The notes below the pieces were generated by a model. That model was not told where the DNA came from, searched no databases, and saw only the letters and a list, made by a program, of their open reading frames with translations. Below, in pieces: positions 5,836-20,887 of a stretch of DNA of 64,000 nucleotides; position 1 is the stretch's first letter; each line of letters begins with the position of its first letter. Origin of the DNA: a virus; the IMG/VR virus record IMGVR_UViG_3300021961_000078, positions 1-64,000 of that record. The stretch is one strand, 5' to 3'. A program made the translations under genes and the position numbers.

Positions 5836-6183
5836 TTATGCAACTGGCACAGGGATGCGGGTCACCGCATGGGGGAGCATCTCATTGCCAGGGTGATCAT
5901 TCACTTTACCCTTATATAGCACAACATCGTGCATATGACTATCATCAACCTCCAGATCATCCCAGTATTCACTAAACACTAAGAGATTACATTGCTCATA
6001 CTTACGAGCAGATCCTACTGGCAATTCCTTCTCTTTGAAGCAAATGCAAATATAGTCATCACATATGAAACTGATGAATCCTTCAGTTTCTTTATAGCGA
6101 GCACGCTGACCAATCTCTAGAGTTTGCAAGATCTTCTTGACCTCCAAGGGGATGCTCTCAGAGATTAGCAGCGGGATGGTCAT
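5836..6183 (-). CDS. Conserved cyanophage hypothetical, 115 aa
   Basis: The middle of the protein (EGFISFICDDYICICFKEKE, then YWDDLEV) resembles small proteins I recall from several cyanomyoviruses, always unassigned. It is a beta-rich single domain. Its start overlaps the stop of the upstream oxygenase by 4 bases, so it may be translated together with the oxygenase run. Confidence 0.65.
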   Translation of the reverse strand: MTIPLLISESIPLEVKKILQTLEIGQRARYKETEGFISFICDDYICICFKEKELPVGSARKYEQCNLLVFSEYWDDLEVDDSHMHDVVLYKGKVNDHPGNEMLPHAVTRIPVPVA

Positions 6184-6806
6184 ATTGTCAACCTCGATTC
6201 CATTGATCCGACTGTGCCTTTAACAAAGTAGTTGAAAGCAACACTGTATCTATGAATCTTTGATGCACTTGCTGTTACATAATGTGGTATGTGTGAGGGA
6301 AAGATAAGGATCATTCCTTTCTCTGGTGTGATAGGAAACTCCCTCATGTTGTAGATATTTGGATCAACAATATCTAAGTTGACTGTGCTTGTTGCATATG
6401 TGGGAAACATTGATGGGATGCTGAATATAATGTCACCACTATCTTCTGGAACAGAGAGATATACCACCCCACTAAACATGCTGTTGACATGCACATGTGA
6501 GGCGGCACGATCTCCCTCTAGGTGTAGATTAACCCAGGATGATTGATGATCAAGATAAACCGATTCTCTACTCGCTCCTAGTATTCCAAACACATAGTCG
6601 CTGAGGTGTGCCTCAACAACTCTCTTCAAGTTGGGCACAGTTTCTAACCATCTTGTATTTGTGCTGATACTACCATTGTTGCCATAGGTAGGATCATCAC
6701 CACATGGATTTACAAACTGTGTGTTTTCTGCATTGATAATACAACCGTCATCTATATCACAATAATCAATGTATAACGGAGTAGAGAATAACGGGAGTAT
6801 TTCCAT
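6180..6806 (-). CDS. 2OG-Fe(II) oxygenase, TIGR02466-like, 208 aa
   Basis: The start MEILPLFSTPLYIDY is the usual opening of this family. The iron ligands are H104-x-H106 and H175, with R186 as the 2-oxoglutarate anchor. FPSHIPHYV around the distal His matches the family pattern. Substrates of the family are mostly unknown, and bacterial members occur beside tryptophan halogenases. ATG 6806 overlaps the region just after the upstream small gene stop (6808). It closes the oxygenase run 10252 to 6180. Confidence 0.8.
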   Translation of the reverse strand: MEILPLFSTPLYIDYCDIDDGCIINAENTQFVNPCGDDPTYGNNGSISTNTRWLETVPNLKRVVEAHLSDYVFGILGASRESVYLDHQSSWVNLHLEGDRAASHVHVNSMFSGVVYLSVPEDSGDIIFSIPSMFPTYATSTVNLDIVDPNIYNMREFPITPEKGMILIFPSHIPHYVTASASKIHRYSVAFNYFVKGTVGSMESRLTI

Positions 6807-6807
6807 A

Positions 6808-6966
6808 TTAACGTAGATGCAATTTGTCTGCAATTTCACCAAGCAACTGTCGCTGATCTTCAGGCATTTCGCCATAACGATTGTAGCAGTCTTTTTGATA
6901 TACAAAAAGTGCTCTTCTCAGTAGGTTTTTTTCCTCTCGGTCGAGGATTGCGCTTGTCAGTAACAT
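6808..6966 (-). CDS. Small helical protein, 52 aa
   Basis: ATG at 6966 is preceded by a good AGGAG Shine-Dalgarno, unusual in this window, and ends at TAA 6808 just before the oxygenase ATG. The peptide (MLLTSAILDREEKNLLRRAL, then GEMPEDQRQLLGEI) is charged and helical. An ATTAAATAG late-promoter-like box lies about 30 bases upstream. No family is recognised. Confidence 0.65.
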   Translation of the reverse strand: MLLTSAILDREEKNLLRRALFVYQKDCYNRYGEMPEDQRQLLGEIADKLHLR

Positions 6967-7017
6967 AGTCCCCAATCTCCTACGGAGTTGTCATTACTAT
7001 TTAATGATAACGGAGTT

Positions 7018-7725
7018 TCAAGAGAGCGCAATGTTTCTCCATATTTCCTTAACTGTCTTGGTATCAAAACCTGCAATACCACGATCTTCTGGTGGTGGAG
7101 TTTCATTCATTTCATAGTCAACAAACAGAGACTGTCTTACATCAGGATCCATATACTTATATGCTAAGACATATCTATTAAACATAAACTTTGGTCCTGG
7201 TGGTCTACCTGTGTGTGGAATACGACCATCAAACATTACAACACGTCCAGGTCTAGGTTGCACAATACACTTTGCATCTAGATCATCATCAAAGAAAATA
7301 GTTTCCCCACCCCATTCAGGATGCCAAACTGGATTCATATAAACTAATACAGTTTTATTCTGTGCCACATTGAATGGTGCATCAACATGAATACCAGGAG
7401 AATTGCCATATCTGAGCACATTGATATATGCAGAATAGCAGTGGTCACGAGGGGGCATCTCGGGCACCACCGCTTCAAGATAGGTCAGAATATCTTGCCA
7501 CAAATTATTATTACTTGCTGCCAATCCTGCATTTTGAAAGTAATCAGGATCTTCAATGGGACAGAAGTTATGTAACTGATGTGTCCAATACATTCCTGCC
7601 CACTCAACATTAGGATTATCTACGGTTGGGGGAGCATCAGTGCGACTGCATTTGTATGGCAGTTGAATGATCTCTTCCGCCAACTCCTGAGTTACTAGAT
7701 TAGTATTGAATACTTGGATTGTCAT
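7018..7725 (-). CDS. 2OG-Fe(II) oxygenase, prolyl-hydroxylase-like, 235 aa
   Basis: The classical site H113-V-D115, WGGETIFF, H171 (in the R-I-P-H-T-G context) and R184 are all present, as in prolyl-4-hydroxylase-type dioxygenases. That branch usually hydroxylates proline or other residues in proteins or peptides. It overlaps its upstream neighbour by 26 bases, showing co-translation within the oxygenase run. The substrate is not known. Confidence 0.85.
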   Translation of the reverse strand: MTIQVFNTNLVTQELAEEIIQLPYKCSRTDAPPTVDNPNVEWAGMYWTHQLHNFCPIEDPDYFQNAGLAASNNNLWQDILTYLEAVVPEMPPRDHCYSAYINVLRYGNSPGIHVDAPFNVAQNKTVLVYMNPVWHPEWGGETIFFDDDLDAKCIVQPRPGRVVMFDGRIPHTGRPPGPKFMFNRYVLAYKYMDPDVRQSLFVDYEMNETPPPEDRGIAGFDTKTVKEIWRNIALS

Positions 7726-8332
7726 TTACAAAGTTACCCATAATGTTGAGGGACATAACATATCTATCCTTATTACTATTATTGACTTCTGTCTTGTGAG
7801 TCAACCACCCTGGGAAGAATAATACATCTCCAGTTTCTACACTGATTGGACACCATTCGTGTCCGTCATCATAATAATGATAGTTAAGTGGTTCTCCCAA
7901 TTTGTATATACTGAGAGGATTCTTGATCATGAATCTACCACTATTCTTTGGAACATGCAAGTATGCAGCAACAGCAACGGTGACATTTTGATGATGATGC
8001 TCTGCTGTCCATGCTCCTGGTGGATGCACATTGATCCACGATTCGGATAGATTCTTATTCATGGGAGCAAGTCTCCACGTCTCCCAAACATCATTAACCT
8101 TATCAAATAACCATGGTCTAAACTCTTCAAACTCATCCCATGCATGAGGTGGAAGGACTCTATTGATGACTACACTTGTTGTGCCACCACCTTTCTCATG
8201 GGTGTCATAATTATTCTCTTCGATCGTCTGCCTTGCTGCTAGCAAATGCCCATCAACTTTATCTTTGATTGTATTAAACTTGAAATCAAACTTACTCTTA
8301 AACACATAGGGGAATGGGTTAATTGATTTCAT
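7700..8332 (-). CDS. 2OG-Fe(II) oxygenase, TIGR02466-like, 210 aa
   Basis: The iron site appears as H112/H114 in EHHHQNVTVAVAAYLHVP, followed by PGWLTHKTEVN (H179) and R190. The YLHVPKNSG strand is typical of the family. It overlaps both neighbours (26 bases downstream, 14 upstream). It is probably part of a co-translated set of oxygenases. Confidence 0.8.
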   Translation of the reverse strand: MKSINPFPYVFKSKFDFKFNTIKDKVDGHLLAARQTIEENNYDTHEKGGGTTSVVINRVLPPHAWDEFEEFRPWLFDKVNDVWETWRLAPMNKNLSESWINVHPPGAWTAEHHHQNVTVAVAAYLHVPKNSGRFMIKNPLSIYKLGEPLNYHYYDDGHEWCPISVETGDVLFFPGWLTHKTEVNNSNKDRYVMSLNIMGNFVNDNPSIQY

Positions 8333-9008
8333 AATACTTTCTCTTGGGACGTTGTATTGATGGCACTGACATCATAGGAATACTTATAGACAACCTCTTC
8401 TGTTTTGGTTGTGCTTGATGATAACATCTCTCAGGTATGAATAACATATCTCCTGGTTGTAGCATCACATCAATGACACAATCAAGATCACTTTCTTTTG
8501 GATCTACATCAGCACTAATCAACTCTGATTGTCTATTATTATAGACTTTCCAATGTGTCTCACCATCAACTTGTAGAATGAAGTTGTGTGCGTGATCTCT
8601 ATGAATAGGGAAAGACTTAGAGTTTTCTAAACCACAATACACATGAAATGCTGCTGTGATGTTTGTAAATATACACTCAATCTCATTCAATAATTCTTGC
8701 TTACCTTTGATCCATTCAAAGTTATTGATGATGCAAGCGTGTCCTGCTTTGAAAGCATTACAAATGTCCTCAACTTCGGGTGTTGGTGGTGACCAGACAC
8801 GATCATACATTGGGAATGAAATATAGTCATTGGTCTTTTTATCAATGAATTGTATATCATAGAAATGAGGATTGTTAAGACAATACTCTACTTCTTTCCA
8901 TGATACAAACTCTTCGGGATTATCACAAATGCCAGGAAAATGCTGTGGAGAATCATCAAGAAACCAATCTTTAGATGATAACAGTTTTGTCAGAGTCGAA
9001 GAGATCAT
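8319..9008 (-). CDS. JmjC/cupin-type oxygenase, 229 aa
   Basis: The motif H136-R-D138 followed by HNFILQVDGETHWKVY and then GDMLFIPERCYHQA (H197) is that of the JmjC/Cupin_4 group, which includes ribosomal-protein hydroxylases such as bacterial YcfD/RoxA. Known members hydroxylate arginine or histidine side chains in proteins. This makes protein hydroxylation plausible here. It overlaps both neighbours. Confidence 0.8.
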   Translation of the reverse strand: MISSTLTKLLSSKDWFLDDSPQHFPGICDNPEEFVSWKEVEYCLNNPHFYDIQFIDKKTNDYISFPMYDRVWSPPTPEVEDICNAFKAGHACIINNFEWIKGKQELLNEIECIFTNITAAFHVYCGLENSKSFPIHRDHAHNFILQVDGETHWKVYNNRQSELISADVDPKESDLDCVIDVMLQPGDMLFIPERCYHQAQPKQKRLSISIPMMSVPSIQRPKRKYYEIN

Positions 9009-9633
9009 AGTCTGATTTGAAATTAAGATTAAGAATCACACGATATGGATTAGTAACTGGATTCGATGATGAATGAAACTGATGTCCATCAAATACAAAT
9101 AATTTATTTGCTTGTGGTGTTACTCTATGCTTAACTGTATATTCTTGTGTACGTGCCCTAAACCATCTCTCATCTACAGTGCCACTCTCAGGATCATCAT
9201 ACTGATCAAAGAATACTGTATCACCTGAAGAGTCATGAAAATAAAATAGAGCAGCATAATGATCCTCCTCACTATCAGTGTGGGCACCATTATGGTGATC
9301 AATGCCGTTATTTAATTGCAATGCAAGTCTCACCCTAAAGAATGTTACGGGGTGAGACATCGCATCTTGAATGTTATCCAATAGAGGTTGAAATGCTGGC
9401 AAATATGGACTCTCAATACCTCCCTGATCCAGAAGTAAGTGAGTGAATCCCACTGTCTTTTCTTCTGGTTTCATATCTAACAATCTATGCTCACCAAACT
9501 CATATCCCTTTGTGCTATATGCAACATCTTCGGATAGGAAAAACCATGGGAATCCATTCATTCCAGATACAAGATCGGTAAGTCTATTCAGATATGACTG
9601 ACCGATAACATTATCTACTTGGATATATTTCAC
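8971..9633 (-). CDS. 2OG-Fe(II) oxygenase, 220 aa
   Basis: Ligands H118-T-D120 and H187, and anchor R198 in the segment NPYRVILNLNF, are clear. GDTVFFDQY precedes the insert. The start codon appears to be GTG at 9633, with no ATG available before residue 25. It overlaps the downstream JmjC gene by 38 bases and the upstream gene by 23. The substrate is unknown. Confidence 0.8.
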   Translation of the reverse strand: MKYIQVDNVIGQSYLNRLTDLVSGMNGFPWFFLSEDVAYSTKGYEFGEHRLLDMKPEEKTVGFTHLLLDQGGIESPYLPAFQPLLDNIQDAMSHPVTFFRVRLALQLNNGIDHHNGAHTDSEEDHYAALFYFHDSSGDTVFFDQYDDPESGTVDERWFRARTQEYTVKHRVTPQANKLFVFDGHQFHSSSNPVTNPYRVILNLNFKSDYDLFDSDKTVII

Positions 9634-10252
9634 GATAGTAATTTGAGAAAGGAATTATATTGAATGATAGAGAGATCCTATCATCATCACTGGCACTTTT
9701 GCTCACACTATGCTGCAACCAAGACGGAAATAAGATCATCATATCATCCTTAGGATCCATGAAGTAATCAGTGCGATTATAATGCTCATTCTGATACTTG
9801 TTAAAATTAGCATCACAACCCCAAGATTCTTTGAGCATCATGTCTTCAAATCTATTATGAAAGTTGATATGACCTGAGCAACATGATGGGACATCAACAT
9901 AATAAACTCCAGACAATACTGACCCAGCATGTGTGTGAAGATTATTATAATGCCCCTTGCCATTAACATTCAACCACAGATTTGTGATCTTCAACGTATA
10001 GTCCTGAAATCCCCATTCATCACAAGCAAGATAAGCAATTTGCAGTATCTTGTCGCGAATCTCTCTCAGAGGATTATTGAGCATTACACTATCAATGAAG
10101 TCGTGAGATTGCCATCCCCCATAGTTGGTGGCAACTCTACCTTCAGGATCTTCTTGTCTAACAAGAGAGATAAACTGCTTTAGTTTATCTCTATCAACCC
10201 CACACTCTTCTTCAATCCAAAGTGGTGTGGGGAATAACAATTCAGTCTTCAC
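9611..10252 (-). CDS. 2OG-Fe(II) oxygenase, TIGR02466-like, 213 aa
   Basis: It begins with the family's TELLFPTPLW strand. Ligands H106-T-H108 and H181, and anchor R192, are present, with GVYYVDVP and FPSWLQHSV as in other members. GTG 10252 is preferred as start because AAGGAG lies 10 bases upstream; a TTG at 10261 is too close to it. It overlaps the upstream coiled-coil gene by 11 bases. It opens the overlapping oxygenase run. Confidence 0.8.
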   Translation of the reverse strand: MKTELLFPTPLWIEEECGVDRDKLKQFISLVRQEDPEGRVATNYGGWQSHDFIDSVMLNNPLREIRDKILQIAYLACDEWGFQDYTLKITNLWLNVNGKGHYNNLHTHAGSVLSGVYYVDVPSCCSGHINFHNRFEDMMLKESWGCDANFNKYQNEHYNRTDYFMDPKDDMMILFPSWLQHSVSKSASDDDRISLSFNIIPFSNYYREIYPSR

Positions 10253-10598
10253 TAAATTCAAACTCCTTGTCAGTCACATTAGGATCAACATGCTTTTTAT
10301 ACAGATACAATGCTTCGATTGCACCAGTAAGTTTGTTGAGGTGATCTTTCTTCAACTGCAATTCTTCCAGTGAAATCTTTGTGATCGTGGAAGTATAATG
10401 CATGTTATCAAGTGCTTCTTGCAGTTTCCAATACTCTTGTTTAGTATCTTCATGCTGCTGCAAGAAATTCATGACAAGTTGGTCAAATGTAATGAGACCT
10501 TCAATCTCATTTTCTTTTTCAATAACTCTTTTTTCTTCTTCAGTGGCAACACCTGCCACCTCGGCAATGTTCACTTCAGTTACAGTTTGCTCAGACAT
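10242..10598 (-). CDS. Coiled-coil hypothetical protein, 118 aa
   Basis: Nearly the whole chain is predicted helical, with heptad patterning from about residue 20 to 95 (KLQEALDNM, EELQLKKDHLNKLTGAIEAL). The termini are acidic. It sits between the DUF6065-like gene and the oxygenases and could be a scaffold or adaptor for them, which is inference only. No enzymatic motif is seen. Confidence 0.6.
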   Translation of the reverse strand: MSEQTVTEVNIAEVAGVATEEEKRVIEKENEIEGLITFDQLVMNFLQQHEDTKQEYWKLQEALDNMHYTSTITKISLEELQLKKDHLNKLTGAIEALYLYKKHVDPNVTDKEFEFSED

Positions 10599-10600
10599 AG

Positions 10601-11479
10601 TTACATAAACCTCTTGATGTTTTTATTTAGCGCAAGAATCACTTTATGTGTCTTGATTCTTTCTTTTAGAGTTTCCATCTCCATAAAGTTTTTGAATCTT
10701 TGATATTCCATGATGTTGTTATTCTCAAGATCATACTCATTTGCAGTCTCAACTACAACATTCCACCCCTGCATCTTTAAGAAATCACGATGCACAGGCA
10801 CCCATTGACACAGCGGTGTGCCTGCTTTGACCAGATATTCTCCTGCTTCAATCTTATGCCAAAAGAGTTGAAGATTGATCTCATAAGAATAAGATGGATC
10901 AACAATACCTATGGGTGGTGTAAATCTATCCTCATCCCAATATGGGATAGGCATTTGAATAAACACTACATCTGGATGTGCTTGCACACGCCAAGGCAAT
11001 TCTAGTTTGACTGTCCAATCGAGCACATCCTTTGTTTGATCTACAAGATCACGCATACCTTCAGTCTGCTGTGGAATATGTGCCTTAACATATCTCTGAT
11101 TGTTATTGAATAGCATCTGAGATGCCCACTCAAAGTTGACACCAGTGCCATCAGTCTTGATAATAAAGTCGGCAGGTGCAGGCAAAACGTATCCACTATC
11201 CATCAAACCTGTCAATGCTGGGCATGTAACAGCATGAGAATATATTTCTGGTGTGCCATCTCTACCATGCATTTCATTCTGCACTCTTTCCCACAATTTC
11301 TTTACACGAAGATATGGGCAACGTTTTGAAGGATCATTCTGCTGTTTGATAGCATCAGTCCTCCATTTACGATGTAATTTCCTTGCAGGAAACCAAGGAT
11401 GCAGATCTGCAACTCCAGGATCTACCGAATAGAATCTAATCCACGGTTTCTTCTTCTTGAATATATTCATCAGTGCCAT
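10601..11479 (-). CDS. DUF6065-like protein, 292 aa
   Basis: The features I recall for DUF6065 are present: a CPALTGLMDSGYVLPAPADF segment (about residues 85-105), FIQMPIPYWDEDRF, and a later KAGTPLCQWVPV strand near residue 220. The biochemical function is unknown. The gene overlaps the tryptophan halogenase by 44 bases. From memory, such genes accompany halogenases and TIGR02466 oxygenases in other cyanophages, which supports one pathway. Confidence 0.6.
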   Translation of the reverse strand: MALMNIFKKKKPWIRFYSVDPGVADLHPWFPARKLHRKWRTDAIKQQNDPSKRCPYLRVKKLWERVQNEMHGRDGTPEIYSHAVTCPALTGLMDSGYVLPAPADFIIKTDGTGVNFEWASQMLFNNNQRYVKAHIPQQTEGMRDLVDQTKDVLDWTVKLELPWRVQAHPDVVFIQMPIPYWDEDRFTPPIGIVDPSYSYEINLQLFWHKIEAGEYLVKAGTPLCQWVPVHRDFLKMQGWNVVVETANEYDLENNNIMEYQRFKNFMEMETLKERIKTHKVILALNKNIKRFM

Positions 11480-13058
11480 AGATAAACTTCAGTAGGTATT
11501 CGTAATGCGTGTTTTGTCTGCTTGCCCATTCTAACACAACTTGTCGATCAAGTTGCCATTTATCATGGATTTCTTTTACAATGTCTAGACGACTATCAAC
11601 ATCGTATTTTGCCTTCTCCATGTAGAATGTTTCATTGATAGGTCGAAATCCTTGACCCGCAGCAATGTATATAGATCCCTGAAGTTTAGCAGAATCATAG
11701 AATGCATTCTCAATACCATCTAAGAGATTAAATACATCATTATATGCATTGATTGTTGACGGAAATGCATCTTTCGGTAGTGGGAATGTGATCTTACTTG
11801 TGCAATCTCTCCAGTATGGTGTATCTTCACGCATACTCAATGCATAATGAAGTGCAATGAAGTTTTTCATTGACTCTATCATATTATCGGTAATCCAATT
11901 ATATGAGTCTGTATCAAACCTCAAAACATGACCTTGGCGTCGCGACAGAGTATCGCACAGATAAATTAGATTCTCATGAGTTGTCATCAGTCCTGTAGAT
12001 TCCAATGGTTCTAGGAAACCAAATGACAATCCAACACCAACTACATTCTTTTCCCATGCAACTTTGTGCTTACCGTGTTTAATCCTGATCGGGAATACGT
12101 CGGCACTTCGGGCAATTTCGGGCGAAAATCTTCCCGATAGGTATTTTCTAAACTCAATCTCAGCATCATGATCTGAAATATGTTTGCTGCTATAAACATA
12201 TCCTGTGCCAATACGATGCCACAGTGGGATATTCCAGACCCATCCACTACTCAAAGCAACACAGTCAGTATATGTTTCCATATCCTCCTGCCTATTAACA
12301 TATGGGATGCGTGTTGCCATTGCTCTATCATTAAAGAGCATGTGATTGAATGACTCAAACTCAACACCCATGTGCTGCTCAAGTAGTAATGACTTGAATC
12401 CTGTGCAATCTAAGAATAGATCTGCGGATACAATTCCCCCATCAGAGGTTACAATAGAATCAATATACCCATCAGGTCTCTTAATTACATTCTCAATATC
12501 ACCCTTGAGATGCACAACACCATTGGGTACTGCAATGTTGTCTCTTAGATATTCTCCAAACAATGCTGCATCCAAATGATATGCAGTATCGTTATCGAAA
12601 TTAAATGTAGATCCAGGAATCTCTTTAGCAATTCTACATTCATCTGCCAAGAATGTATTGAGATTGGCAAAGCGGGCAAATTCTTCGGGTGGATATAATT
12701 CATATCCAAATTGACACTGCAATTCAAAGAATCTCAACAGAGCATCCCTGTAATCGATCATGTCAAAGTGACCGAAAGGATACTGGAATCTCTCTCCCTT
12801 CCCCTCTCTAAAATCCTTAAATGCAATGGAAGTTTTATAAGTTGCATTACATGCAGGCATCCAATCAGAATCCTTCAAATCTAATCGTCTGAGGAATCGA
12901 TTGAAGTGTCCTAGTGTAGATTCACCCACACCGATCGTTGGCACTCGTTCAGACTCAATCAGAGCGATCTCCATGTCTGGAAATGTTTTGGACAGCAGTG
13001 CTGCTGCCATCCATCCACTACTACCGCCGCCAACAATACAAATACTTTCTACTTTCAT
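11436..13058 (-). CDS. Flavin-dependent tryptophan halogenase, 540 aa
   Basis: The FAD-binding GGGSSGW near the N-terminus, the WVWNIP motif around residue 271, a Lys in SIAFKDF (about 83) and FLEPLEST with its Glu near 349 all match flavin-dependent halogenases. Such enzymes use FADH2, O2 and chloride or bromide to halogenate indole rings, free or in a carrier. I start at ATG 13058 (MKVESICIVGGG), because a GTG at 13085 would sit inside the terminator hairpin. Substrate and halide are unknown. It heads the oxygenase cluster. Confidence 0.85.
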   Translation of the reverse strand: MKVESICIVGGGSSGWMAAALLSKTFPDMEIALIESERVPTIGVGESTLGHFNRFLRRLDLKDSDWMPACNATYKTSIAFKDFREGKGERFQYPFGHFDMIDYRDALLRFFELQCQFGYELYPPEEFARFANLNTFLADECRIAKEIPGSTFNFDNDTAYHLDAALFGEYLRDNIAVPNGVVHLKGDIENVIKRPDGYIDSIVTSDGGIVSADLFLDCTGFKSLLLEQHMGVEFESFNHMLFNDRAMATRIPYVNRQEDMETYTDCVALSSGWVWNIPLWHRIGTGYVYSSKHISDHDAEIEFRKYLSGRFSPEIARSADVFPIRIKHGKHKVAWEKNVVGVGLSFGFLEPLESTGLMTTHENLIYLCDTLSRRQGHVLRFDTDSYNWITDNMIESMKNFIALHYALSMREDTPYWRDCTSKITFPLPKDAFPSTINAYNDVFNLLDGIENAFYDSAKLQGSIYIAAGQGFRPINETFYMEKAKYDVDSRLDIVKEIHDKWQLDRQVVLEWASRQNTHYEYLLKFIYGTDEYIQEEETVD

Positions 13059-13061
13059 ACT

Positions 13062-13091
13062 AAAAAAATAGAGGTGTTTACTCACCTCTAT
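13062..13091 (-). terminator. Rho-independent terminator
   Basis: On the minus strand a 9-bp stem (ATAGAGGTG / CACCTCTAT as read on plus) with a 6-base loop is followed by seven T. It lies between the stop of the structural gene at 13113 and the halogenase start, so it ends late structural transcription and isolates the halogenase cluster. Confidence 0.8.
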
Positions 13092-13112: not shown

Positions 13113-13544
13113 TTATACGCCAGGTGGCACCCAGTTGTCAACCCAAGGATCCCACGCTGCTCTTCCGTCAAGTTGCACTTTCTTAGGATCTTCCACAAAC
13201 TCAGGAATAGATGTGGGTGAAGTTGTGCTTGCTTTTACTGCTGCAATATGATCTCTCCAGCGAGTGCCACCATCAAGAGAATCTTTATACTGCATATCTA
13301 ATTGCTCACCAATAGGACCATATGCCAATTCTCGATCAACAACAGCACTTCGTCTCAGATCTTCTTGCTCACTGTGATGGATAACTACACCATTTACCAT
13401 CACATGTTCGTATGTGCAGTCATCAGGCACTGATACCCACTTCATTTCAGCATCAGGACCTTCATAGATCTCAAACTTATCTGCCTCATCACAGATGTCT
13501 GATAGTTGTCCTGTTGTCTTACTGCAAATTGCTACTTTTGCCAT
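13113..13544 (-). CDS. Virion-associated or fibre-related protein, 143 aa
   Basis: The C-terminal half (IGEQLDMQYKDSLDGGTRWRDHIAAVKA, given here in pieces: IGEQLDMQYKD and WRDHIAAVKA) resembles a module common at the ends of cyanophage fibre or fibre-assembly proteins. A similar module ends the 103-residue protein at 16073. It has its own late promoter (13568) and a terminator downstream. The exact role is not known. Confidence 0.55.
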   Translation of the reverse strand: MAKVAICSKTTGQLSDICDEADKFEIYEGPDAEMKWVSVPDDCTYEHVMVNGVVIHHSEQEDLRRSAVVDRELAYGPIGEQLDMQYKDSLDGGTRWRDHIAAVKASTTSPTSIPEFVEDPKKVQLDGRAAWDPWVDNWVPPGV

Positions 13545-13567: not shown

Positions 13568-13575
13568 TATTTATA
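13568..13575 (-). promoter_or_regulatory. Late promoter TATAAATA
   Basis: An exact T4-type late box lies 24 bases before ATG 13544, with an AAGGAG ribosome site in between. It sits immediately beyond the stop codon of the upstream adhesin gene. Confidence 0.7.
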
Positions 13576-14379
13576 TTAACCGTAGTATTCATAAACAACT
13601 ACGACGCCTTCACGTCCTCTAGCACCTCTGTTACCTTCACGAGCACCGTTACCTCCAGCACCCCAAGCGGCGTGAGATTGGTGATTGTGTGCATAGTTTC
13701 TTTGGTTATACGATGAAGGTTGCGTGCCACCCATATATGATGCACCTGCGGTGTGATTTCCATATGAGTGATATGATCCGTGACCATTACCGCCACCACC
13801 ATATACATTTAGAGTACCACCAGATCCATTGCCACCAATGCCTCCAGCGTGCTGCTGTCTACAGTTAGCACCATATCCGCCAGATGCTGAGCAATAACTG
13901 CCAAATGACGATGTATTTCCACCACCCCCACATCCAGAGTAGTTTGTGCCACCACCAGGATTTCCTACAGTAACAGTGACTGATGAGACGTTGGTAACAT
14001 CGAGCATACGCTCTGACATACCACCAGCACCACCAGATTCACAGAAACCTGATCCACCACCACCAGCACCAACTACTTGGACGCGAATAGATTTAACGTT
14101 ACTAGGTCTACTCCAAGTGCCGTTAGATGTCCACACCTGCATAGAGCGAAACCCTGTGGTTGTGCTGACATCAACCCATTGGAGATTCGTACCATTGGTA
14201 GACAGATATTTTCCACTCTGGAGAGATGGAATGATATAGTTGGAAGAACCTGAGATAGATCCGTTAATCGAAAGATTATTCACCTTCAAAGTGCCACTAA
14301 CAGTGATGGATCCACCAGAGAGAGTGAAACCACCAATACCTGCTAAGTCTTTAATAGATGCTACTTTAAGAACGCTCAT
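13576..14379 (-). CDS. Glycine-rich tail adhesin, copy 1, 267 aa
   Basis: The N-terminal 70 residues are a beta-rich head (KVASIKDLAGIGGFTLSGG, then SNYIIPSLQSGKYL). Next comes MQVWTSNGTW and, from residue 105 on, several polyglycine blocks separated by variable His/Tyr/Ser loops, ending GAREGNRGARGREGVVVV. This layout recalls the polyglycine-sandwich adhesins (gp38 type) at T-even fibre tips, which bind host receptors. It is one of three tandem paralogues, each with its own late promoter. Copy 1 differs mainly in the loops around residues 205-245. Confidence 0.7.
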   Translation of the reverse strand: MSVLKVASIKDLAGIGGFTLSGGSITVSGTLKVNNLSINGSISGSSNYIIPSLQSGKYLSTNGTNLQWVDVSTTTGFRSMQVWTSNGTWSRPSNVKSIRVQVVGAGGGGSGFCESGGAGGMSERMLDVTNVSSVTVTVGNPGGGTNYSGCGGGGNTSSFGSYCSASGGYGANCRQQHAGGIGGNGSGGTLNVYGGGGNGHGSYHSYGNHTAGASYMGGTQPSSYNQRNYAHNHQSHAAWGAGGNGAREGNRGARGREGVVVVYEYYG

Positions 14380-14400
14380 TGGACACTTCCTTCTTAGATG

Positions 14401-14408
14401 TATTTATC
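14401..14408 (-). promoter_or_regulatory. Late promoter GATAAATA
   Basis: It sits 22 bases upstream of ATG 14379 and overlaps the stop codon of the preceding adhesin copy. An AAGGAAG ribosome site follows. Confidence 0.65.
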
Positions 14409-15216
14409 AACCGAAAAACTCTTGGACAACAACTACACCTTCACGTCCTCTAGCACCTCTGTTGCCTTCACGAGCACCATTGCCTCCAGCACCCCAAGCG
14501 CAATGAGATTGGTGATTGTGTGCATAGTTTCTCTGGTTGTGTGATGAAGGTTGGGATCCACCCATGTAACTACATCCAGCAGAGTGATTACCATAGATGT
14601 GATATGAACCATGTCCACATCCACCACCACCATACACATTTACACTACCACCAGATCCATTGCCACCAATGCCTCCAGCGTGTTGTGAGCGACAGTTAGC
14701 ACCATATCCACCAGATGCAGAGCAATAACTACCAAACGATGAAGTGTTACCATTACCCCCACATCCAGAGTAGTTTGTGCCACCACCAGGATTTCCTACA
14801 GTAACACCAACGGATGAAACATTAGTAACATCCACAACACGCTCTGCCATACCACCAGCGCCGCCAGATTCAGCAAAACCCGATCCGCCGCCGCCAGCAC
14901 CAACAACAGTTACGATGATAGATTTACATCCAGTAGGTCTATTCCAAGTGCCGTTAGATGTCCACACCTGCATGGATCTAATGCCACTACCAACAGTTGC
15001 AGTCTGCCATTCCAGACCACCACCTGTTGATGCCAAAATCTTTCCAGAGTTACCTGCTTGTGGGGGAATTACATATGCAGACTGACCCTGAATCTGACCG
15101 TTAATAATAACATTAGATATAGTGAGAGTAGTGCTTACAGTGATACCACCGCCCGAGAATTGAAAACCCGCCGAGTCGGTAAGATCCCTAATAGATGCTA
15201 CTTTTAACTGTGACAT
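14407..15216 (-). CDS. Glycine-rich tail adhesin, copy 2, 269 aa
   Basis: The architecture is the same as copy 1. The N-terminal module (KVASIRDLTDSAGFQFSGGG) differs clearly, and the tip loops carry different residues (CGHGSYHIYGNHSAGCSYMG). The polyglycine core is nearly unchanged. Cys residues in the loops are more numerous than in copies 1 and 3. It is probably a receptor-binding variant used in place of, or alongside, the other two. Confidence 0.7.
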   Translation of the reverse strand: MSQLKVASIRDLTDSAGFQFSGGGITVSTTLTISNVIINGQIQGQSAYVIPPQAGNSGKILASTGGGLEWQTATVGSGIRSMQVWTSNGTWNRPTGCKSIIVTVVGAGGGGSGFAESGGAGGMAERVVDVTNVSSVGVTVGNPGGGTNYSGCGGNGNTSSFGSYCSASGGYGANCRSQHAGGIGGNGSGGSVNVYGGGGCGHGSYHIYGNHSAGCSYMGGSQPSSHNQRNYAHNHQSHCAWGAGGNGAREGNRGARGREGVVVVQEFFG

Positions 15217-15233
15217 AGCAGTTTCTTTTTAGT

Positions 15234-15241
15234 TATTTATC
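15234..15241 (-). promoter_or_regulatory. Late promoter GATAAATA
   Basis: A late box 18 bases before ATG 15216, overlapping the end of adhesin copy 3. Confidence 0.6.
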
Positions 15242-16049
15242 AACCGAAAAACTCGTGGACAACCACAACACCTTCACGTCCTCTAGCACCACGGTTACCA
15301 TGCTGAGAACCATTACCACCAGCACCCCAAGCAGCATGTGATTGGTGCCTGTGTGAATAATTTGACTGGTTGTGTGATGAAGGTTGTGACCCACCCCAGT
15401 ATGAAACTCCACCAGCATGAGTGCCATAGGAGTGGTGAGATCCATGACCATTACCACCACCGCCGTAGATATTCAAACTACCACCAGATCCATTGCCTCC
15501 GATGCCTCCAGCGTGCTGCTGTCTACAGTTAGCACCATATCCACCAGATGCACTACAGTATGATCCAAAGGATGAGGTATTTCCACCACCCCCACATCCA
15601 GAGTAGTTTGTGCCACCACCAGGAGTGCCTACAGTAACAGTAACTGATGAGACGTTAGTAACATCCACCTGTCTCTGTGCAGTACCACCAGCACCACCAG
15701 ATTCACAGTGTCCAGATCCACCGCCGCCACCGCCAGTTACGGTTACCATAATAGTTCTTACACCACTGGGTTTACTCCAAGTGCCGTTAGATGTCCACAC
15801 CTGCATGGATCTAACACCAGTCTGGGTGTTAAGAGTACCCCACTGAGTTGTGGAACCGTTGTTAGTTAAAAACTTGCCACTATTTCCAGATGGATTAGGA
15901 ATCAGAAATCCAGAAGATCCACTAATAGTGCCATCAACCACTAGGTCAGTCACAGTTAAAGTGCCGTTAGCAGTAACACCCCCAGAGGAGAGCGTAAAAC
16001 CACCCACACCACTTAAATCTTTAATAGCATTTACATTTAACTGTGCCAT
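15240..16049 (-). CDS. Glycine-rich tail adhesin, copy 3, 269 aa
   Basis: The architecture is the same as copies 1 and 2. The N-terminus is MAQLNVNAIKDLSGVGGF. The tip loops (HHSYGTHAGGVSYWGGSQ) and the near-C-terminal segment (GNGSQHGNRGARGREG) differ from the other copies. It is the first of the three in transcription order. The shared polyglycine blocks suggest the same fold with diversified receptor loops. Confidence 0.7.
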   Translation of the reverse strand: MAQLNVNAIKDLSGVGGFTLSSGGVTANGTLTVTDLVVDGTISGSSGFLIPNPSGNSGKFLTNNGSTTQWGTLNTQTGVRSMQVWTSNGTWSKPSGVRTIMVTVTGGGGGGSGHCESGGAGGTAQRQVDVTNVSSVTVTVGTPGGGTNYSGCGGGGNTSSFGSYCSASGGYGANCRQQHAGGIGGNGSGGSLNIYGGGGNGHGSHHSYGTHAGGVSYWGGSQPSSHNQSNYSHRHQSHAAWGAGGNGSQHGNRGARGREGVVVVHEFFG

Positions 16050-16072: not shown

Positions 16073-16384
16073 TTATTTATCAAGGTATTGTTTCATTGTA
16101 TTGAAGAATGATCCACCTTTGTTGAGTGAATTATTATTCAAATCATGCCATAACAACTCAAGTTGCTCTTCAAGAGTTGGTTTAGGCGGAGGTGCAAACC
16201 TATCTCTAATATCCCATTCCCTTTGCACTTCCTCGCACATTGCTTCTAATCTAGCAACAGAAATACTGGGAAACTCTGGATCATGAGGAAACATAATAGT
16301 GCTCATATCACCATCAGTCATAATAAAGTCTTTACCATCAGAGAGGCGACGGATCGCCTCTGCTTTCACATCATCAGAAAACAT
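16073..16384 (-). CDS. Small fibre-associated protein, 103 aa
   Basis: The N-terminal half is mixed, and the C-terminal part (EEQLELLWHDLNNN, then KGGSFFNTMKQYL) matches a short helical module found at the ends of many cyanophage fibre or fibre-chaperone proteins. It lies 1 base from the end of the upstream structural gene. A chaperone or minor tail role is likely but unproven. Confidence 0.5.
   Translation of the reverse strand: MFSDDVKAEAIRRLSDGKDFIMTDGDMSTIMFPHDPEFPSISVARLEAMCEEVQREWDIRDRFAPPPKPTLEEQLELLWHDLNNNSLNKGGSFFNTMKQYLDK
16074..16081 (-). promoter_or_regulatory. Late promoter GATAAATA
   Basis: A late box 25 bases before ATG 16049, with an AGGAG ribosome site between. It overlaps the stop of the 103-residue gene. 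Confidence 0.65.
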
Positions 16385-16385
16385 A

Positions 16386-17285
16386 TTAACCTCTAATTTC
16401 CATTGCCATCAAGGTGCTGATTGATCTCATATCATTACCATCTCTATCGTTAATGTAGAGATTTCTTGTACCACCACTCCAAGATGCAGATGCACCGACA
16501 CTATATGTCTGGGGATTGATGCTATTTGGCATATCCATATACATCAAATTCATATTCCACATCAAACCATCTTGATCATCACCACTATAGAATGTGGATA
16601 CACTACCGCTGCTTACGTTAGTATTTCCACTAAGTCCTGAAGTAAGGATACTATTGTTTCTCAAGAAACCAAACGAGCAAACATGACGAGCAGTCGTATT
16701 AACCATTGCCATCAACAGGATCTTAGAGGATGTATGTGATGGTTGAATGGTAACTTCCAAGTTAGGAATTGCACTAAGATTTTGCGCTTGGATCAAATAT
16801 CGTGATGCTGGGGTTTGAGAATATCTCACCTGAAGGACTTGACCTTCACCAACGTCATTATCCTCACCACCAAGAATAAACCAGGATGCTGCATTCTCAA
16901 TGGTAACTGTATAACCATTTTGAATTTCTACAGGACCAGCAGTGAATCCATTACGAAACTCCTCACCACCATTTGCAACAGGACCAACAGTGATATTTTG
17001 ATTGATGAAGTTTGCGTTAGTGCGAATGATCGAATCTTCACCAACAGAAGGACCACCGCCACCAACATCATCCCAACCAGGCACACCTGCCTGTGCATCC
17101 TGAAGGTAGATCTGTGCCATATCTTCAGTGGTGTTATACACCAGTGTGCCATAGGCAGGTGTGCCTAAAGCATTGATGGCAGTCTGGTTTAGTGCAGGCA
17201 GATTGATCTGCTCAGTGACAGACAGTGCTTCAATAATAGCACGGGTCGCTGCATCAATCTGATTGCCTATGATTTTGGTAGACAT
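16386..17285 (-). CDS. Virion structural protein, fibre-like, 299 aa
   Basis: A beta-rich protein with an N-terminal segment (GTPAYGTLVYNTTEDMAQIY) of the kind found at the starts of fibre and neck proteins. A central part with a GEEFRNGFTAGPVEIQNG repeat-like region and a C-terminal jelly-roll-like half (TSSKILLMAMVNT) follow. It lies among structural genes with a late promoter (17306). No exact family is recognised. Confidence 0.55.
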   Translation of the reverse strand: MSTKIIGNQIDAATRAIIEALSVTEQINLPALNQTAINALGTPAYGTLVYNTTEDMAQIYLQDAQAGVPGWDDVGGGGPSVGEDSIIRTNANFINQNITVGPVANGGEEFRNGFTAGPVEIQNGYTVTIENAASWFILGGEDNDVGEGQVLQVRYSQTPASRYLIQAQNLSAIPNLEVTIQPSHTSSKILLMAMVNTTARHVCSFGFLRNNSILTSGLSGNTNVSSGSVSTFYSGDDQDGLMWNMNLMYMDMPNSINPQTYSVGASASWSGGTRNLYINDRDGNDMRSISTLMAMEIRG

Positions 17286-17314: not shown

Positions 17315-20300
17315 CTAGATAACCAATTCACGGATCATAACGTTATCACCAGTCTGGGGAGTTGTGCCCACAGAGAAGTCAACAGCGTTTGCAGTCACAG
17401 TATAGTCAGTGCCAGGACGCTGACAAACACCATTCAAGAATACCAGGACAGAGTTTTGATTGTGTCCAGGCGAAATTGCGAATGAAGTAGTGCTACCATT
17501 ACCAGTATACATGACACCATTGTTGCCATTATTGACACCTGTTGCCAGTGAGTATTTATCTGCACATCCATACCTACCAGTCACATCCAGGTTTCCAGTG
17601 ATCTCAGTATTACCAGAGATTCTCATTCTGTTATTGGCATCAGGGGCAATTCCGATACCATAATGTGTTTCACCAGAGAATCTTTGTGAAGTGATAGGTC
17701 CAGTATCACTCAGACCAAACTTATACCAGATTCCAGATTCATAAATCCAACCAAGGAATGTGCCAGGAGTCCAGTCAACATTATAGCAAAGATCACCAGT
17801 GTTAAATGCAGCAAGTGGATCCACATCTGGGTTGCCAGCACCATCGTCAGGTGCCATCAGAATGTTTCTCAGCACCGTGCCATCATCGTTAGACAGTGTG
17901 AAGTTGAGAGTCTGAATCTGATCCTGTGATGTAATCTTCTTCTGGAAGGTTACAGGACCTGAGAATACAGATTCCAACTGGTTAGATGCACCACCAATAA
18001 CAGTCAGTTTATCAGTCAGCACCAACTCAGAGAATGTCTCAATCGTTGTGCCTTCTTCACCCAACACATTCAACTGTGCAATATCCTCGTTAGTGATCTG
18101 ACCTGTAACTGGGTTGATAACTTGGTTACCAACAAACAACTCACCATCACTATTCACACCAGAGTAGTATGCAACGCCTGCTGCTTCTTTGAGTGACTGA
18201 GATAGTCTAACTGCTTCAGGTGAGAGCACTTCCACCTGAGTAGATGGGAATGCTGTTGAATAGTTACCAGGACCAAATCCAAGATACTCAAACGTGTGAC
18301 CAGATGCACGAAGAATAGAATAACGACGCAACTCAATCAAGATAGGTTGGACAGAGTTGTCAGCATTCAGTTTCAGGGGGATCTTACGCTCTTCAGCATC
18401 ACCAAGACGTGCAGTCACAGAGATACCATTCAGCACGTTTGATGTAGTGTTATAACCTAGGTTATTCTCAGATTCCAACAGGAAGAATTGAGATGATTCC
18501 TTAGTAATAGATCTCTCTGTGTCTAGATTGGGTGTAGGTGAAGCACCATCAGTTGTAAATACTTCACCAATGATTTCATTATCGGCAATAGACACAGCAG
18601 CAGGAGGATCTGCCACAGGGTTATCTCTGTCAAATGCAGGATACAGATCAACCGTATTCTGAGAGAAGTAGAAATCGTTGAAGTTTGATGTAGAAGGAGC
18701 AACAGATGCATTCAAGAATGTCAGATAGTAGATACCATCTGCAACACCACGCTCAAACTCTTGGAATGTCTCTACACTATAGATGTAGTATGTCTTAGAG
18801 TATGCAGGAGAGTTTGTCTCTGATGATCTAGGTTGTGCAACGAAACCTGTAATGGGAGGACGGGGCACAGGGAATGCATCTTTATCGAGCACATAGCGAT
18901 AACGATAGATTCTGTCAACAAGGTTTCTCGCATCGGGCACACGACGGATGAATGTAGTAGGTGTGAATCCGAGATTCTGATAAAGAGAGTTTGCTTGTAG
19001 TGTAGTGTAGATAGTGTTAGCACTTGCATCTACTTGAATATACCATGCATTATTAACACTATCCCACTTCAGAGGTGAGTCATCATCACCAGCACGAGTG
19101 CCAGTTACTTGCTTACCTGAAGGATTGATCTCTGCATAGTGTGTGGTAGGTTCTGTTGCACCTGATGCAAGCAGAAGCACATATAGTCTGTCAGGTGTAT
19201 TAACGTCATCACGTCTTGCACCAACAGTATAACCTTGCACTTTGCTTGGTGGTCTACCTGTCTCCACTGTATATCCATACAGGAAGAGTTTGGAAGGATC
19301 AGCAACACTACGAGTCTTGTTAATATCAATCGTCACCCAGTTGATAGAGATCTCATCAACATCATCTAGCGACTTAGGTGGAATGACGTGAGTGATTTGA
19401 CCTGCTTTATCCTTGGTAAAGGCATTTGCCTTGAAACCTTTGGATCGGAGAGATGTGTTACCAAAGTTGGAGTTAGAGTTGGTAATTGAAAGGTCACCAC
19501 CACTATCTGAGAAGAAGTGATCACCGAATCCCACAGCAAACACCGACACAACCTGAATGAATGCGTCATTAGATGCTTTAATGTGGCAATGACGCCATCC
19601 CTTACGATACTTACATAGACCGTTAATGTGTGCGCCAGATCCTGCTGCTTGGACTTCATATGCACCAGTCGTTTGGTTATACAACACAAACGCTCTATCA
19701 TCTTTTTGTAGTGAAATACCAGTAAACTGTGCAACCACCATCGATTTGAAACCAGTTGCCTCAGCACCATCGGCGTGCATACCATTGATGCCCCACACCG
19801 ATCTGAGTGACATGTTGAAGACATATGGTGACGCAGAGTCAACAGTATCAATCTCAACTTTCACCAGAATGTTACTACCAAGTGCGTTACCTGATGGTTC
19901 AGCAGACATCTGGTAAGTGAATTGGTTGCCCTGTGCTGACGTTACCAGGAATGATCCATTGTAGAGGAGAGCATCTTGGTCAGTAGGACCAGTAACACCA
20001 GATATATTAACAGCGACACCCACGGAGAATCCATGATTCTTCGGATTGCCCAATTCGTCCACCGTGAAGGCGGTTGCGGTTTGACCATTGCGGATAATCT
20101 GGGAAACTGCAAATTCGTCCGAGATAGGACCCACAATTCTGTTTTCTTCCACCCTGGGTTGCAACTGGTCTTGTGCAACGATGCCAGAGGTATCAGGAAT
20201 AACAGCATAACCTTTGGAGATCTTTTGGTAATACAACTCAAGATCTGCCTTGTTTGCATACTCAAAACATGTCACCTTATGGTGAGAATAGTTAGGAGCA

Positions 20301-20887
20301 ATTTGCGAAAGATCGTCACGATAGTAAACACCAGTTGTGTCACCATCAAAGAATGATGCCTGCCAGAAATAGCAACCACCAGTTACCCTAAAGATCGCAG
20401 TAGGATCAGGTTCATTAGCAGCAGTAATGCCGAGACTACCCTGTACTGTGGGATAAGGGACGTATTTCGGAATGAACTTGGTTCGACGTAAGTCCGAACC
20501 AACAACAGAAGCACCACGAGGGACAATAACACCACCGCGAGTTGAATTAAACTTATAAAGTTCATTGCTTGGAGATGTTAGATCAAAGTTTGAGTTTTCA
20601 TTAAATGGTTGGATCTGGTTGTAATCAGAAAGACCAGGACGGTTATCAATTACATATTCAGATGGATACAAATAAATCGAGAAGGCGTCAAATTCGTCGT
20701 TTGACAGACCGACTCGATACGAAAATCTAGCAACCTCAAGGAATGCACGTTGCAACGTCTTAAACGGACGCAACGCCGAGTTACCTCGGTTGTCATATGC
20801 GTCCGATGCATCGAAGTCATCAGGGTTGACGTAGATAATACGTCCTGTCCTCGACGTAATGATATTCTTAAGACGAGTAAGTGCCAT
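17315..20887 (-). CDS. Large virion structural protein, 1190 aa
   Basis: The opening (RLKNIITSRTGRIIYVNPDD, then RPFKTLQRAFLEVARFSYRVG) is the one I recall from the large structural protein present in cyanomyovirus particles. It resembles the start of a right-handed beta-helix of the pectate-lyase type, and later sections contain collar- or fibre-like beta repeats. It ends in a GYTVTANAVDF-like module seen at the tips of phage fibres. It probably builds a baseplate or long fibre part. A single late promoter precedes it (20913). Confidence 0.65.
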   Translation of the reverse strand: MALTRLKNIITSRTGRIIYVNPDDFDASDAYDNRGNSALRPFKTLQRAFLEVARFSYRVGLSNDEFDAFSIYLYPSEYVIDNRPGLSDYNQIQPFNENSNFDLTSPSNELYKFNSTRGGVIVPRGASVVGSDLRRTKFIPKYVPYPTVQGSLGITAANEPDPTAIFRVTGGCYFWQASFFDGDTTGVYYRDDLSQIAPNYSHHKVTCFEYANKADLELYYQKISKGYAVIPDTSGIVAQDQLQPRVEENRIVGPISDEFAVSQIIRNGQTATAFTVDELGNPKNHGFSVGVAVNISGVTGPTDQDALLYNGSFLVTSAQGNQFTYQMSAEPSGNALGSNILVKVEIDTVDSASPYVFNMSLRSVWGINGMHADGAEATGFKSMVVAQFTGISLQKDDRAFVLYNQTTGAYEVQAAGSGAHINGLCKYRKGWRHCHIKASNDAFIQVVSVFAVGFGDHFFSDSGGDLSITNSNSNFGNTSLRSKGFKANAFTKDKAGQITHVIPPKSLDDVDEISINWVTIDINKTRSVADPSKLFLYGYTVETGRPPSKVQGYTVGARRDDVNTPDRLYVLLLASGATEPTTHYAEINPSGKQVTGTRAGDDDSPLKWDSVNNAWYIQVDASANTIYTTLQANSLYQNLGFTPTTFIRRVPDARNLVDRIYRYRYVLDKDAFPVPRPPITGFVAQPRSSETNSPAYSKTYYIYSVETFQEFERGVADGIYYLTFLNASVAPSTSNFNDFYFSQNTVDLYPAFDRDNPVADPPAAVSIADNEIIGEVFTTDGASPTPNLDTERSITKESSQFFLLESENNLGYNTTSNVLNGISVTARLGDAEERKIPLKLNADNSVQPILIELRRYSILRASGHTFEYLGFGPGNYSTAFPSTQVEVLSPEAVRLSQSLKEAAGVAYYSGVNSDGELFVGNQVINPVTGQITNEDIAQLNVLGEEGTTIETFSELVLTDKLTVIGGASNQLESVFSGPVTFQKKITSQDQIQTLNFTLSNDDGTVLRNILMAPDDGAGNPDVDPLAAFNTGDLCYNVDWTPGTFLGWIYESGIWYKFGLSDTGPITSQRFSGETHYGIGIAPDANNRMRISGNTEITGNLDVTGRYGCADKYSLATGVNNGNNGVMYTGNGSTTSFAISPGHNQNSVLVFLNGVCQRPGTDYTVTANAVDFSVGTTPQTGDNVMIRELVI

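What the first reader, a model, noticed from the sequence alone, without database searches (positions are those of the whole stretch)
13576..16049. Three tandem polyglycine adhesins with diversified tips and separate promoters
Three paralogues share a near-identical glycine-rich core but differ in N-terminal modules and in His/Tyr/Ser-rich loops. Each has its own late box at the junction. This resembles gp38-type adhesins that set host range, but here three versions coexist rather than one. Long near-identical stretches would let the genes recombine and swap tips.
Basis: partly seen in the sequence, partly recalled or inferred. Interest (0 to 1): 0.7.

Follow-up and report, generated by a model that had tools for sequence, protein, structure and literature searches.

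The report
Cyanophage array of three glycine-rich fibres
A marine cyanobacterial virus carries three side-by-side genes for glycine-rich tail-fibre proteins that probably grip the host; the triplet is an old, stable arrangement in related viruses, in which the front ends differ from copy to copy while the presumed gripping ends stay alike.

Summary
The three genes are real (minus strand, read 16049 to 13576), each behind its own T4-type late box, in a T4-like cyanophage contig related to P-TIM40. The glycine-rich core (residues 80-269) is predicted to fold like the head of the trimeric cyanophage Pam3 fibre gp24 (Z 20.5); gp38 membership is not supported. Three copies are usual here: 59 of 71 homologous loci carry exactly three complete tandem copies. 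What differs between copies is mainly the N-terminal module: in 31 dereplicated loci, 93 of 93 N-termini have their nearest relative in the same slot. The core is the conserved part: His233, His235, His238, Cys152, Cys175, Trp91 and Trp241 are invariant in 82 of 82 close sequences. Exchange of cores between slots is detectable but modest. A halogenase gene follows in 63 of 63 testable loci and a chaperone-like gene in 65 of 66. Published virion proteomics of relative S-SZBM1 does not list its two copies, which counts against abundant virion proteins. Best reading: slot-specific short fibres sharing one kind of head. Most novel reading left open: the neighbouring halogenase and oxygenases modify these heads.

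The parts
15240..16049 (-). slot 1 glycine-rich fibre, 269 aa: slot-specific N-module (res 1-79) + TNF-like/glycine-rich core (80-269)
14407..15216 (-). slot 2 glycine-rich fibre, 269 aa
13576..14379 (-). slot 3 glycine-rich fibre, 267 aa
16074..16080 (-). late box ATAAATA before slot 1, overlapping the stop codon of the upstream ORF
15234..15240 (-). late box before slot 2, overlapping the slot 1 stop codon by one base
14401..14407 (-). late box before slot 3, overlapping the slot 2 stop codon by one base
13568..13574 (-). late box before the chaperone-like ORF
13113..13544 (-). 143-aa ORF (phrog_1787), beta N-domain plus helical C-domain; candidate fibre chaperone; its homologue follows the last copy in 65 of 66 loci
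11436..13085 (-). flavin-dependent (tryptophan) halogenase, PF04820; homologue in 63 of 63 testable loci
8319..9008 (-). JmjC_2 (PF08007) oxygenase
9611..10261 (-). 2OG-Fe(II) oxygenase (PF13759); others above cut-off at 6180-6905, 7018-7725, 7700-8332; 8971-9633 only below the cut-off
16386..17285 (-). phrog_7459 protein; homologue S-SZBM1_51 listed in virions (one peptide)
17315..20887 (-). 1190-aa tail fibre (phrog_529); homologue S-SZBM1_52 listed in virions

Best explanation
The three genes encode three short fibre proteins. Each has a slot-specific N-terminal module of about 79 residues, inferred to be shaft and docking part, and a shared head of about 190 residues, predicted to be a TNF-like sheet bundle carrying a glycine-rich lattice as in the head of the trimeric Pam3 fibre gp24. 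Each is transcribed late, from its own late box or by read-through. The 143-aa protein downstream probably helps all three fold and trimerise, as gp25 does for Pam3 gp24. The three slots are old and stable, so they most likely occupy different positions in the tail apparatus and present the same kind of head to the host. Shown here: genes, boxes, predicted fold match, slot orthology, conservation of the head, gene linkage. Inferred: trimer, docking, chaperone action, receptor binding. Core exchange between slots occurs now and then and, by inference, keeps heads alike more than it diversifies them.
For: Fold: model pLDDT mostly 83-97 per ten-residue block in the core, except 62 at residues 201-210; Pam3 fibre 7ypx_A Foldseek E 1.2e-7, Z 20.5, rmsd 2.5, 181 aligned, residues 73-269. 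Slot orthology: N-terminal nearest neighbour in the same slot 93 of 93; within-genome paralogue identity 0.452 against 0.450 for different slots of different genomes; the N-module tree needs the minimum of 2 label changes. Shared head: core identity 0.814 within genome, 0.806 same slot between genomes, 0.774 different slot and genome. Stable number: 59 of 71 loci with exactly three complete copies. Chaperone: position in 65 of 66 loci; beta domain 1-56 then helices, as gp25 has beta 1-55 then helices 64-162 (PMC9608196 passage); the top Foldseek row among 350,542 PDB chains is the 162-residue gp25 chain of the Pam3 complex, though only at E 2.8.
Against: S-SZBM1 virion LC-MS (Table 1, 30 proteins) does not list copies _48 and _49, although they hold 9 and 8 tryptic peptides of 7-30 residues against 6 for the listed _51. 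S-SZBM1 is reported without long tail fibres, and S-WAM1, P-RSM6 and P-TIM40 as lacking them or their genes (PMC9146016 section). The chaperone fold match is not significant by itself: E 2.8, and Z 3.5 ties with unrelated helical rows. N-module pLDDT is 57-75 and no trimer was modelled. In Syn9 the second copy is broken as recorded and in S-CREM1 the first, so not every copy need be required. No binding evidence exists.
Confidence: 0.68

Rival explanations
1. One reading: gp38-type adhesins, tips on a long fibre, three alternative diversified versions that set host range and swap tips.
For: Glycine-rich core and His/Tyr/Ser-rich segments; RefSeq name 'tail fiber assembly' for homologues; the Pam3 authors note that gp24 resembles S16 gp38 (PMC9608196 passages); core exchange signals: tract test p < 0.01 in 5 of 93 same-genome pairs against 0 of 186 control pairs.
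Against: No gp38 Pfam hit in 94 of 94; the core is more conserved than the N-module, also within one slot; three His of the His-rich segment invariant in 82 of 82; cores mostly stay with their slot: nearest neighbour same slot 81, same genome 8, other 4 of 93; two S-RIM44 isolates differ by one residue each in slots 1 and 2 and none in slot 3.
Confidence: 0.15
2. The three paralogues are chains of one obligate heterotrimeric fibre, which would explain a conserved number of three and parallel evolution of the heads.
For: Exactly three in 59 of 71 loci; trimeric structural template; heads of one genome more alike than heads of different slots in different genomes.
Against: Six isolates carry two (Syn9, Syn10, S-WAM1, P-RSM6, S-SZBM1, S-CREM1); in Syn9 and S-CREM1 one of the two is broken as recorded; separate late boxes give no obvious stoichiometric control.
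Confidence: 0.06
3. Non-virion or transient factors (assembly aids or shed decoys), not adhesins of the finished particle.
For: Not listed in S-SZBM1 virions while _51 to _54 are, not for lack of tryptic peptides; homologues annotated 'tail fiber assembly'.
Against: Own late boxes among structural genes; predicted fold of a fibre head; non-detection in one 30-protein list is weak, and the neighbour _50 is also not listed.
Confidence: 0.11

Closest known systems
Pam3 tail fibre gp24 (PDB 7YPX) with chaperone gp25
   Same: TNF-like plus glycine-rich head, Z 20.5 over 181 residues at 29% identity; small beta+helical gene directly downstream
   Different: Pam3 has one fibre protein with an N-terminal helical domain (PMC9608196 passages); here three genes with N-modules predicted without helix and specific to the slot; chaperone match weak
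phrog_863 / PF21722 fibre proteins of Kyanoviridae (P-TIM40, Syn9, S-RIM44, S-SZBM1)
   Same: Homologous tandem arrays in a like gene order
   Different: Two copies in six isolates; slot 2 of P-TIM40 has 529 aa with an extra C-terminal part
gp38 adhesins of S16/PP01
   Same: Glycine-rich lattice with protruding loops as host-recognition principle (PMC12892980 abstract)
   Different: No gp38 family hit; head conserved across slots and loci; own N-module
ALK/LTK glycine-rich domain of animals
   Same: Z 8.4-9.4 over 127-136 residues
   Different: Distant fold resemblance only

Membership tests
PF21722 Gly_rich_2 | profile score above curated cut-off | tested here: met
   three copies 33.8-39 bits against 24.3; 94 of 94 homologues match at E <= 0.01
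phrog_863 tail fiber assembly | profile match over most of the protein | tested here: met
   E 2.3e-61, 3.1e-60, 8.4e-64
Pam3 gp24-type fibre | TNF-like plus glycine-rich head fold | tested here: met
   predicted model
Pam3 gp24-type fibre | homotrimer | not testable with these tools
   single chains only were predicted
Pam3 gp24-type fibre | N-terminal helical domain that docks to the baseplate | tested here: not met
   N-module predicted as strands and loops without helix, at pLDDT 57-75; so only the head is likened to gp24, the whole protein is not filed as a gp24
Pam3 gp24-type fibre | dedicated chaperone gene next to it | tested here: inconclusive
   gene and domain layout present; fold match to the gp25 chain 7ypx_a not significant, E 2.8, Z 3.5 over 54 residues; no sequence match
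T-even gp38 adhesin | sequence family (Pfam gp38 adhesin model, PF05268, number recalled) | tested here: not met
   no such hit (E up to 1) or in 94 proteins
T-even gp38 adhesin | S16/PP01 gp38 fold | tested here: inconclusive
   not among the rows shown; an absent row excludes nothing
T-even gp38 adhesin | hypervariable distal loops on a conserved stem | tested here: inconclusive
   core entropy 0.57 bits against 1.44 in the N-module, His233/235/238 invariant 82/82, but segment 201-221 reaches 1.00 and distal loops could not be mapped on coordinates

The most novel reading that the evidence does not exclude
The array and the enzyme genes behind it form one module: the flavin halogenase and the JmjC/2OG-Fe(II) oxygenases hydroxylate or halogenate the fibre heads on their invariant His, Trp or other residues, giving a chemically modified, possibly metal-binding, receptor-binding surface. 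This would also explain why an ordinary peptide search missed these proteins in S-SZBM1 virions.
Probability: 0.1. Interest if true: 0.85.

Novelty: new variant of a known kind. Interest (0 to 1): 0.42.

Why it matters
Host recognition by T4-like cyanophages is poorly mapped and many of their fibre genes are unnamed. A stable set of slots with one conserved head and differing N-modules inverts the usual picture of one dock and variable tips, and gives a concrete target for adsorption genetics. The near-constant linkage to a halogenase and oxygenases offers a testable substrate for enzymes whose role in cyanophages is unexplained (a review calls the antibiotic-protection idea speculative: PMC2984593, passages).

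Tried and rejected
Megablast of the region against phages: best place covers 4% of the query, S-WAM1 only. Sequence searches of PDB with proteins and profiles: nothing meaningful. S16/PP01 gp38 did not appear among rows; inconclusive by rule. S-PM2d175, an 'adhesin component' under selection in chemostats (PMC9910659 passages), is a 1177-aa protein and was set aside by length and place, without alignment. The S-TIM4 adaptation paper (PMC6224464 passages) was read for these genes; the passages did not name them. Strong concerted evolution rejected as the main force: four-fold-site identity within genomes exceeds that of different slots between genomes by 0.049 in the core (0 of 2000 permutations reach it) but also by 0.038 in the N-module (1 of 2000), so much of the excess may be genome composition. 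The window's own three pairs give no significant tract (p 0.57, 0.20, 0.07), although their core four-fold identity (0.65-0.67) exceeds the best to any other locus of the set (0.59-0.62). AU tests of one core clade per slot: p 0.39, 0.08, 0.046, so discordance is modest. Halogenase linkage as exclusive: rejected, since Sf-CH11 and S-B64 have related halogenases and are absent from the array hits. Halogenases of S-MbCM6, P-SSM2, HTVC008M, Syn1 and S-SSM7 (27-33% identity) show no annotated array nearby. Literature searches; from titles, abstract starts and the passages read, none describes this array as adhesins; the library lacks most subscription journals and the gp38 review PMC3157838 is not held.

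Full report
What is there. Three ORFs of 269, 269 and 267 aa lie head to tail on the minus strand at 15240-16049, 14407-15216 and 13576-14379. I call them slots 1, 2, 3 in reading order. The record is a 68,117-base virus contig. The neighbourhood matches Kyanoviridae cyanophages, nearest P-TIM40 by the array protein: 1190-aa fibre, 299-aa protein, small ORF, array, 143-aa ORF, tryptophan halogenase, 2OG-Fe(II) oxygenases.

Late boxes. ATAAATA occurs 22 times on the minus and once on the plus strand of the window, five times at consecutive junctions around the array. The cyanophage late promoter is reported as NATAAATA (PMC2984593, passages). Three of the boxes (16074, 15234, 14401) overlap the stop codon of the gene before. 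Relatives keep a box within 45 nt of the start in 35, 39 and 38 of 59 loci for slots 1, 2 and 3, against 1.5% of random stretches.

Copy number. Of 71 loci with a homologue (63 from one viral-contig scan seeded with the slot 1 protein, seven isolate records, and the window), 59 have exactly three complete copies; near-identical contigs are included in that count. Of the other 12, five isolates have two (Syn9, Syn10, P-RSM6, S-WAM1, S-SZBM1), S-CREM1 has one plus a truncated one, L053 has two, L060 one shortened, and L045, L047, L050 and L059 are cut by contig ends. In a second search S-RIM44 (five records), Sf-FP1, Sf-CH3 and Sf-FR1 give three places each. Three copies are therefore the usual state of a large clade.

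Which part differs. The 59 three-copy loci were reduced to 35 at 97% identity and four distant ones were set aside, leaving 31 loci (93 proteins). N-module (residues 1-79): identity 0.452 within a genome, 0.610 for the same slot in different genomes, 0.450 for different slots in different genomes; nearest neighbour in the same slot 93 of 93. Core (80-269): 0.814, 0.806 and 0.774; nearest neighbour same slot 81, same genome 8, other slot and genome 4. The N-module tree needs 2 label changes, the least possible; the core tree needs 10, with starred pairs joining two slots of one genome in L005 and L018, and the P-TIM40-type slot 2 cores starred within slot 3 cores. AU tests of one core clade per slot give p 0.39, 0.08 and 0.046, so this is moderate evidence at most. 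A silent-site tract test gives p < 0.01 in 5 of 93 same-genome pairs and in 0 of 186 control pairs; the window's own pairs give 0.57, 0.20 and 0.07 (no correction for multiple tests). In Syn9, compared with Syn10, 420 bp of the second gene's core are repeated at 98.8% identity and the gene is broken as recorded; a record error cannot be excluded. So exchange between cores happens, but slots keep their identity.

The head is the conserved part. In 82 close sequences (all slots, several per locus) Cys152, Cys175, His233, His235 and His238 are invariant, Cys165 is kept in 81 and His226 in 79; Trp91 and Trp241 in 82. In 12 distant sequences His179, His202 and His226 persist in 12 of 12 and His235 in 8, while His233 and His238 persist in 3 each, Cys165 in 4 and Cys152 and Cys175 in none. 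Segment 201-221 is the most variable part of the core (entropy 1.00 bits) and the least certain in the model. HxH pairs bind iron in T4 gp37 and have been proposed as iron sites in marine phage fibres (PMC11705849, passages); whether these His bind metal is untested.

Fold. The slot 1 model has mean pLDDT 82.8: 57-75 per ten-residue block in the N-module, 83-97 in the core except 62 at residues 201-210. Best solved match: Pam3 fibre gp24, Foldseek E 1.2e-7, TM-score 0.50, Z 20.5 over 181 residues; next the Bxb1 tail tip (15.6) and ALK/LTK (8.4-9.4). Pam3 gp24 is a trimer folded with chaperone gp25 (PMC9608196, passages). The 143-aa ORF model (pLDDT 92.7) has a beta domain at 1-56 and helices from 57, as gp25 has beta 1-55 and helices 64-162. 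Its top Foldseek row is the 162-residue chain of that complex, but at E 2.8, and Z 3.5 over 54 residues ties with unrelated helical rows; this is only suggestive.

Neighbourhood. Of 70 loci (window left out, close copies kept), a homologue of the 143-aa ORF starts within 150 nt of the last copy in 65 of the 66 with 600 nt to spare (the exception is L060), and a halogenase homologue within 1.4 kb in 63 of the 63 with 1500 nt to spare; 30 of 34 dereplicated loci reach 1500 nt. Conversely, of 26 phage records with a halogenase match of 37% identity or more over 94% or more of the query (H37-H62; several phages have two records), 20 carry the array and 6 (Sf-CH11, Sf-CH1a, two records each of S-B64 and S-H35) are absent from the array hits. 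The window halogenase has GGGSSG and WVWNIP motifs and the JmjC_2 protein an HRD motif; that these mark active flavin halogenases and Fe(II) oxygenases, and that JmjC_2 enzymes include protein His/Arg hydroxylases, is recalled. Modification of the heads is a proposal, not a result.

Proteomics. Table 1 of the S-SZBM1 virion LC-MS lists 30 proteins, among them _51, _52, _53 and _54, but not _48, _49 or the intervening _50 (PMC9146016); numbering was matched by the lengths 1192 and 287 aa. Copies _48 and _49 have 9 and 8 tryptic peptides of 7-30 residues, the listed _51 has 6. This weakens a claim of abundant virion proteins. The paper searches (above all) showed no description of this array as adhesins.

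Verdict. A known kind of part (a cyanophage fibre head) in a less ordinary arrangement: old slots with different N-modules and one conserved head. The host-range-cassette reading is mostly not supported.

Noticed in passing
window 6180-10261: A dense run of oxygenase genes of several families (PF13759, PF13640, PF08007 JmjC_2) behind the halogenase; substrates unknown.
   Followed up: partly
window 60423-61919: A second, distant homologue of the halogenase (498 aa, 214 bits) far from the array.
   Followed up: no
L067 9814-11403 (P-TIM40 slot 2) and similar loci such as L032, L033, L036, L039, L046: Slot 2 protein has about 529 aa, with an extra C-terminal part of about 260 aa after the glycine-rich core that has no Pfam hit above cut-off.
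   Followed up: partly
L071 6341-6540 (S-CREM1 copy 1): Cluster of stops and substitutions; 36 of 60 differences from Syn10 are changes to T, possibly a record error or a decayed copy.
   Followed up: partly
L068 6807-8079 (Syn9 gene 39): 420-bp near-exact repeat of the glycine-rich core, absent from Syn10, breaks the second copy as recorded.
   Followed up: yes
window 16073-16384: 103-aa ORF just before the array, weakly like phrog_9114 (E 0.002) and phrog_1787 (E 0.0036, the family of the 143-aa ORF); no homologue found in many of the relatives.
   Followed up: no
L072 4241-5116 (S-SZBM1 gp050): A 291-aa protein just before the array with 32% glycine that the core profile of this family does not find.
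   Followed up: no
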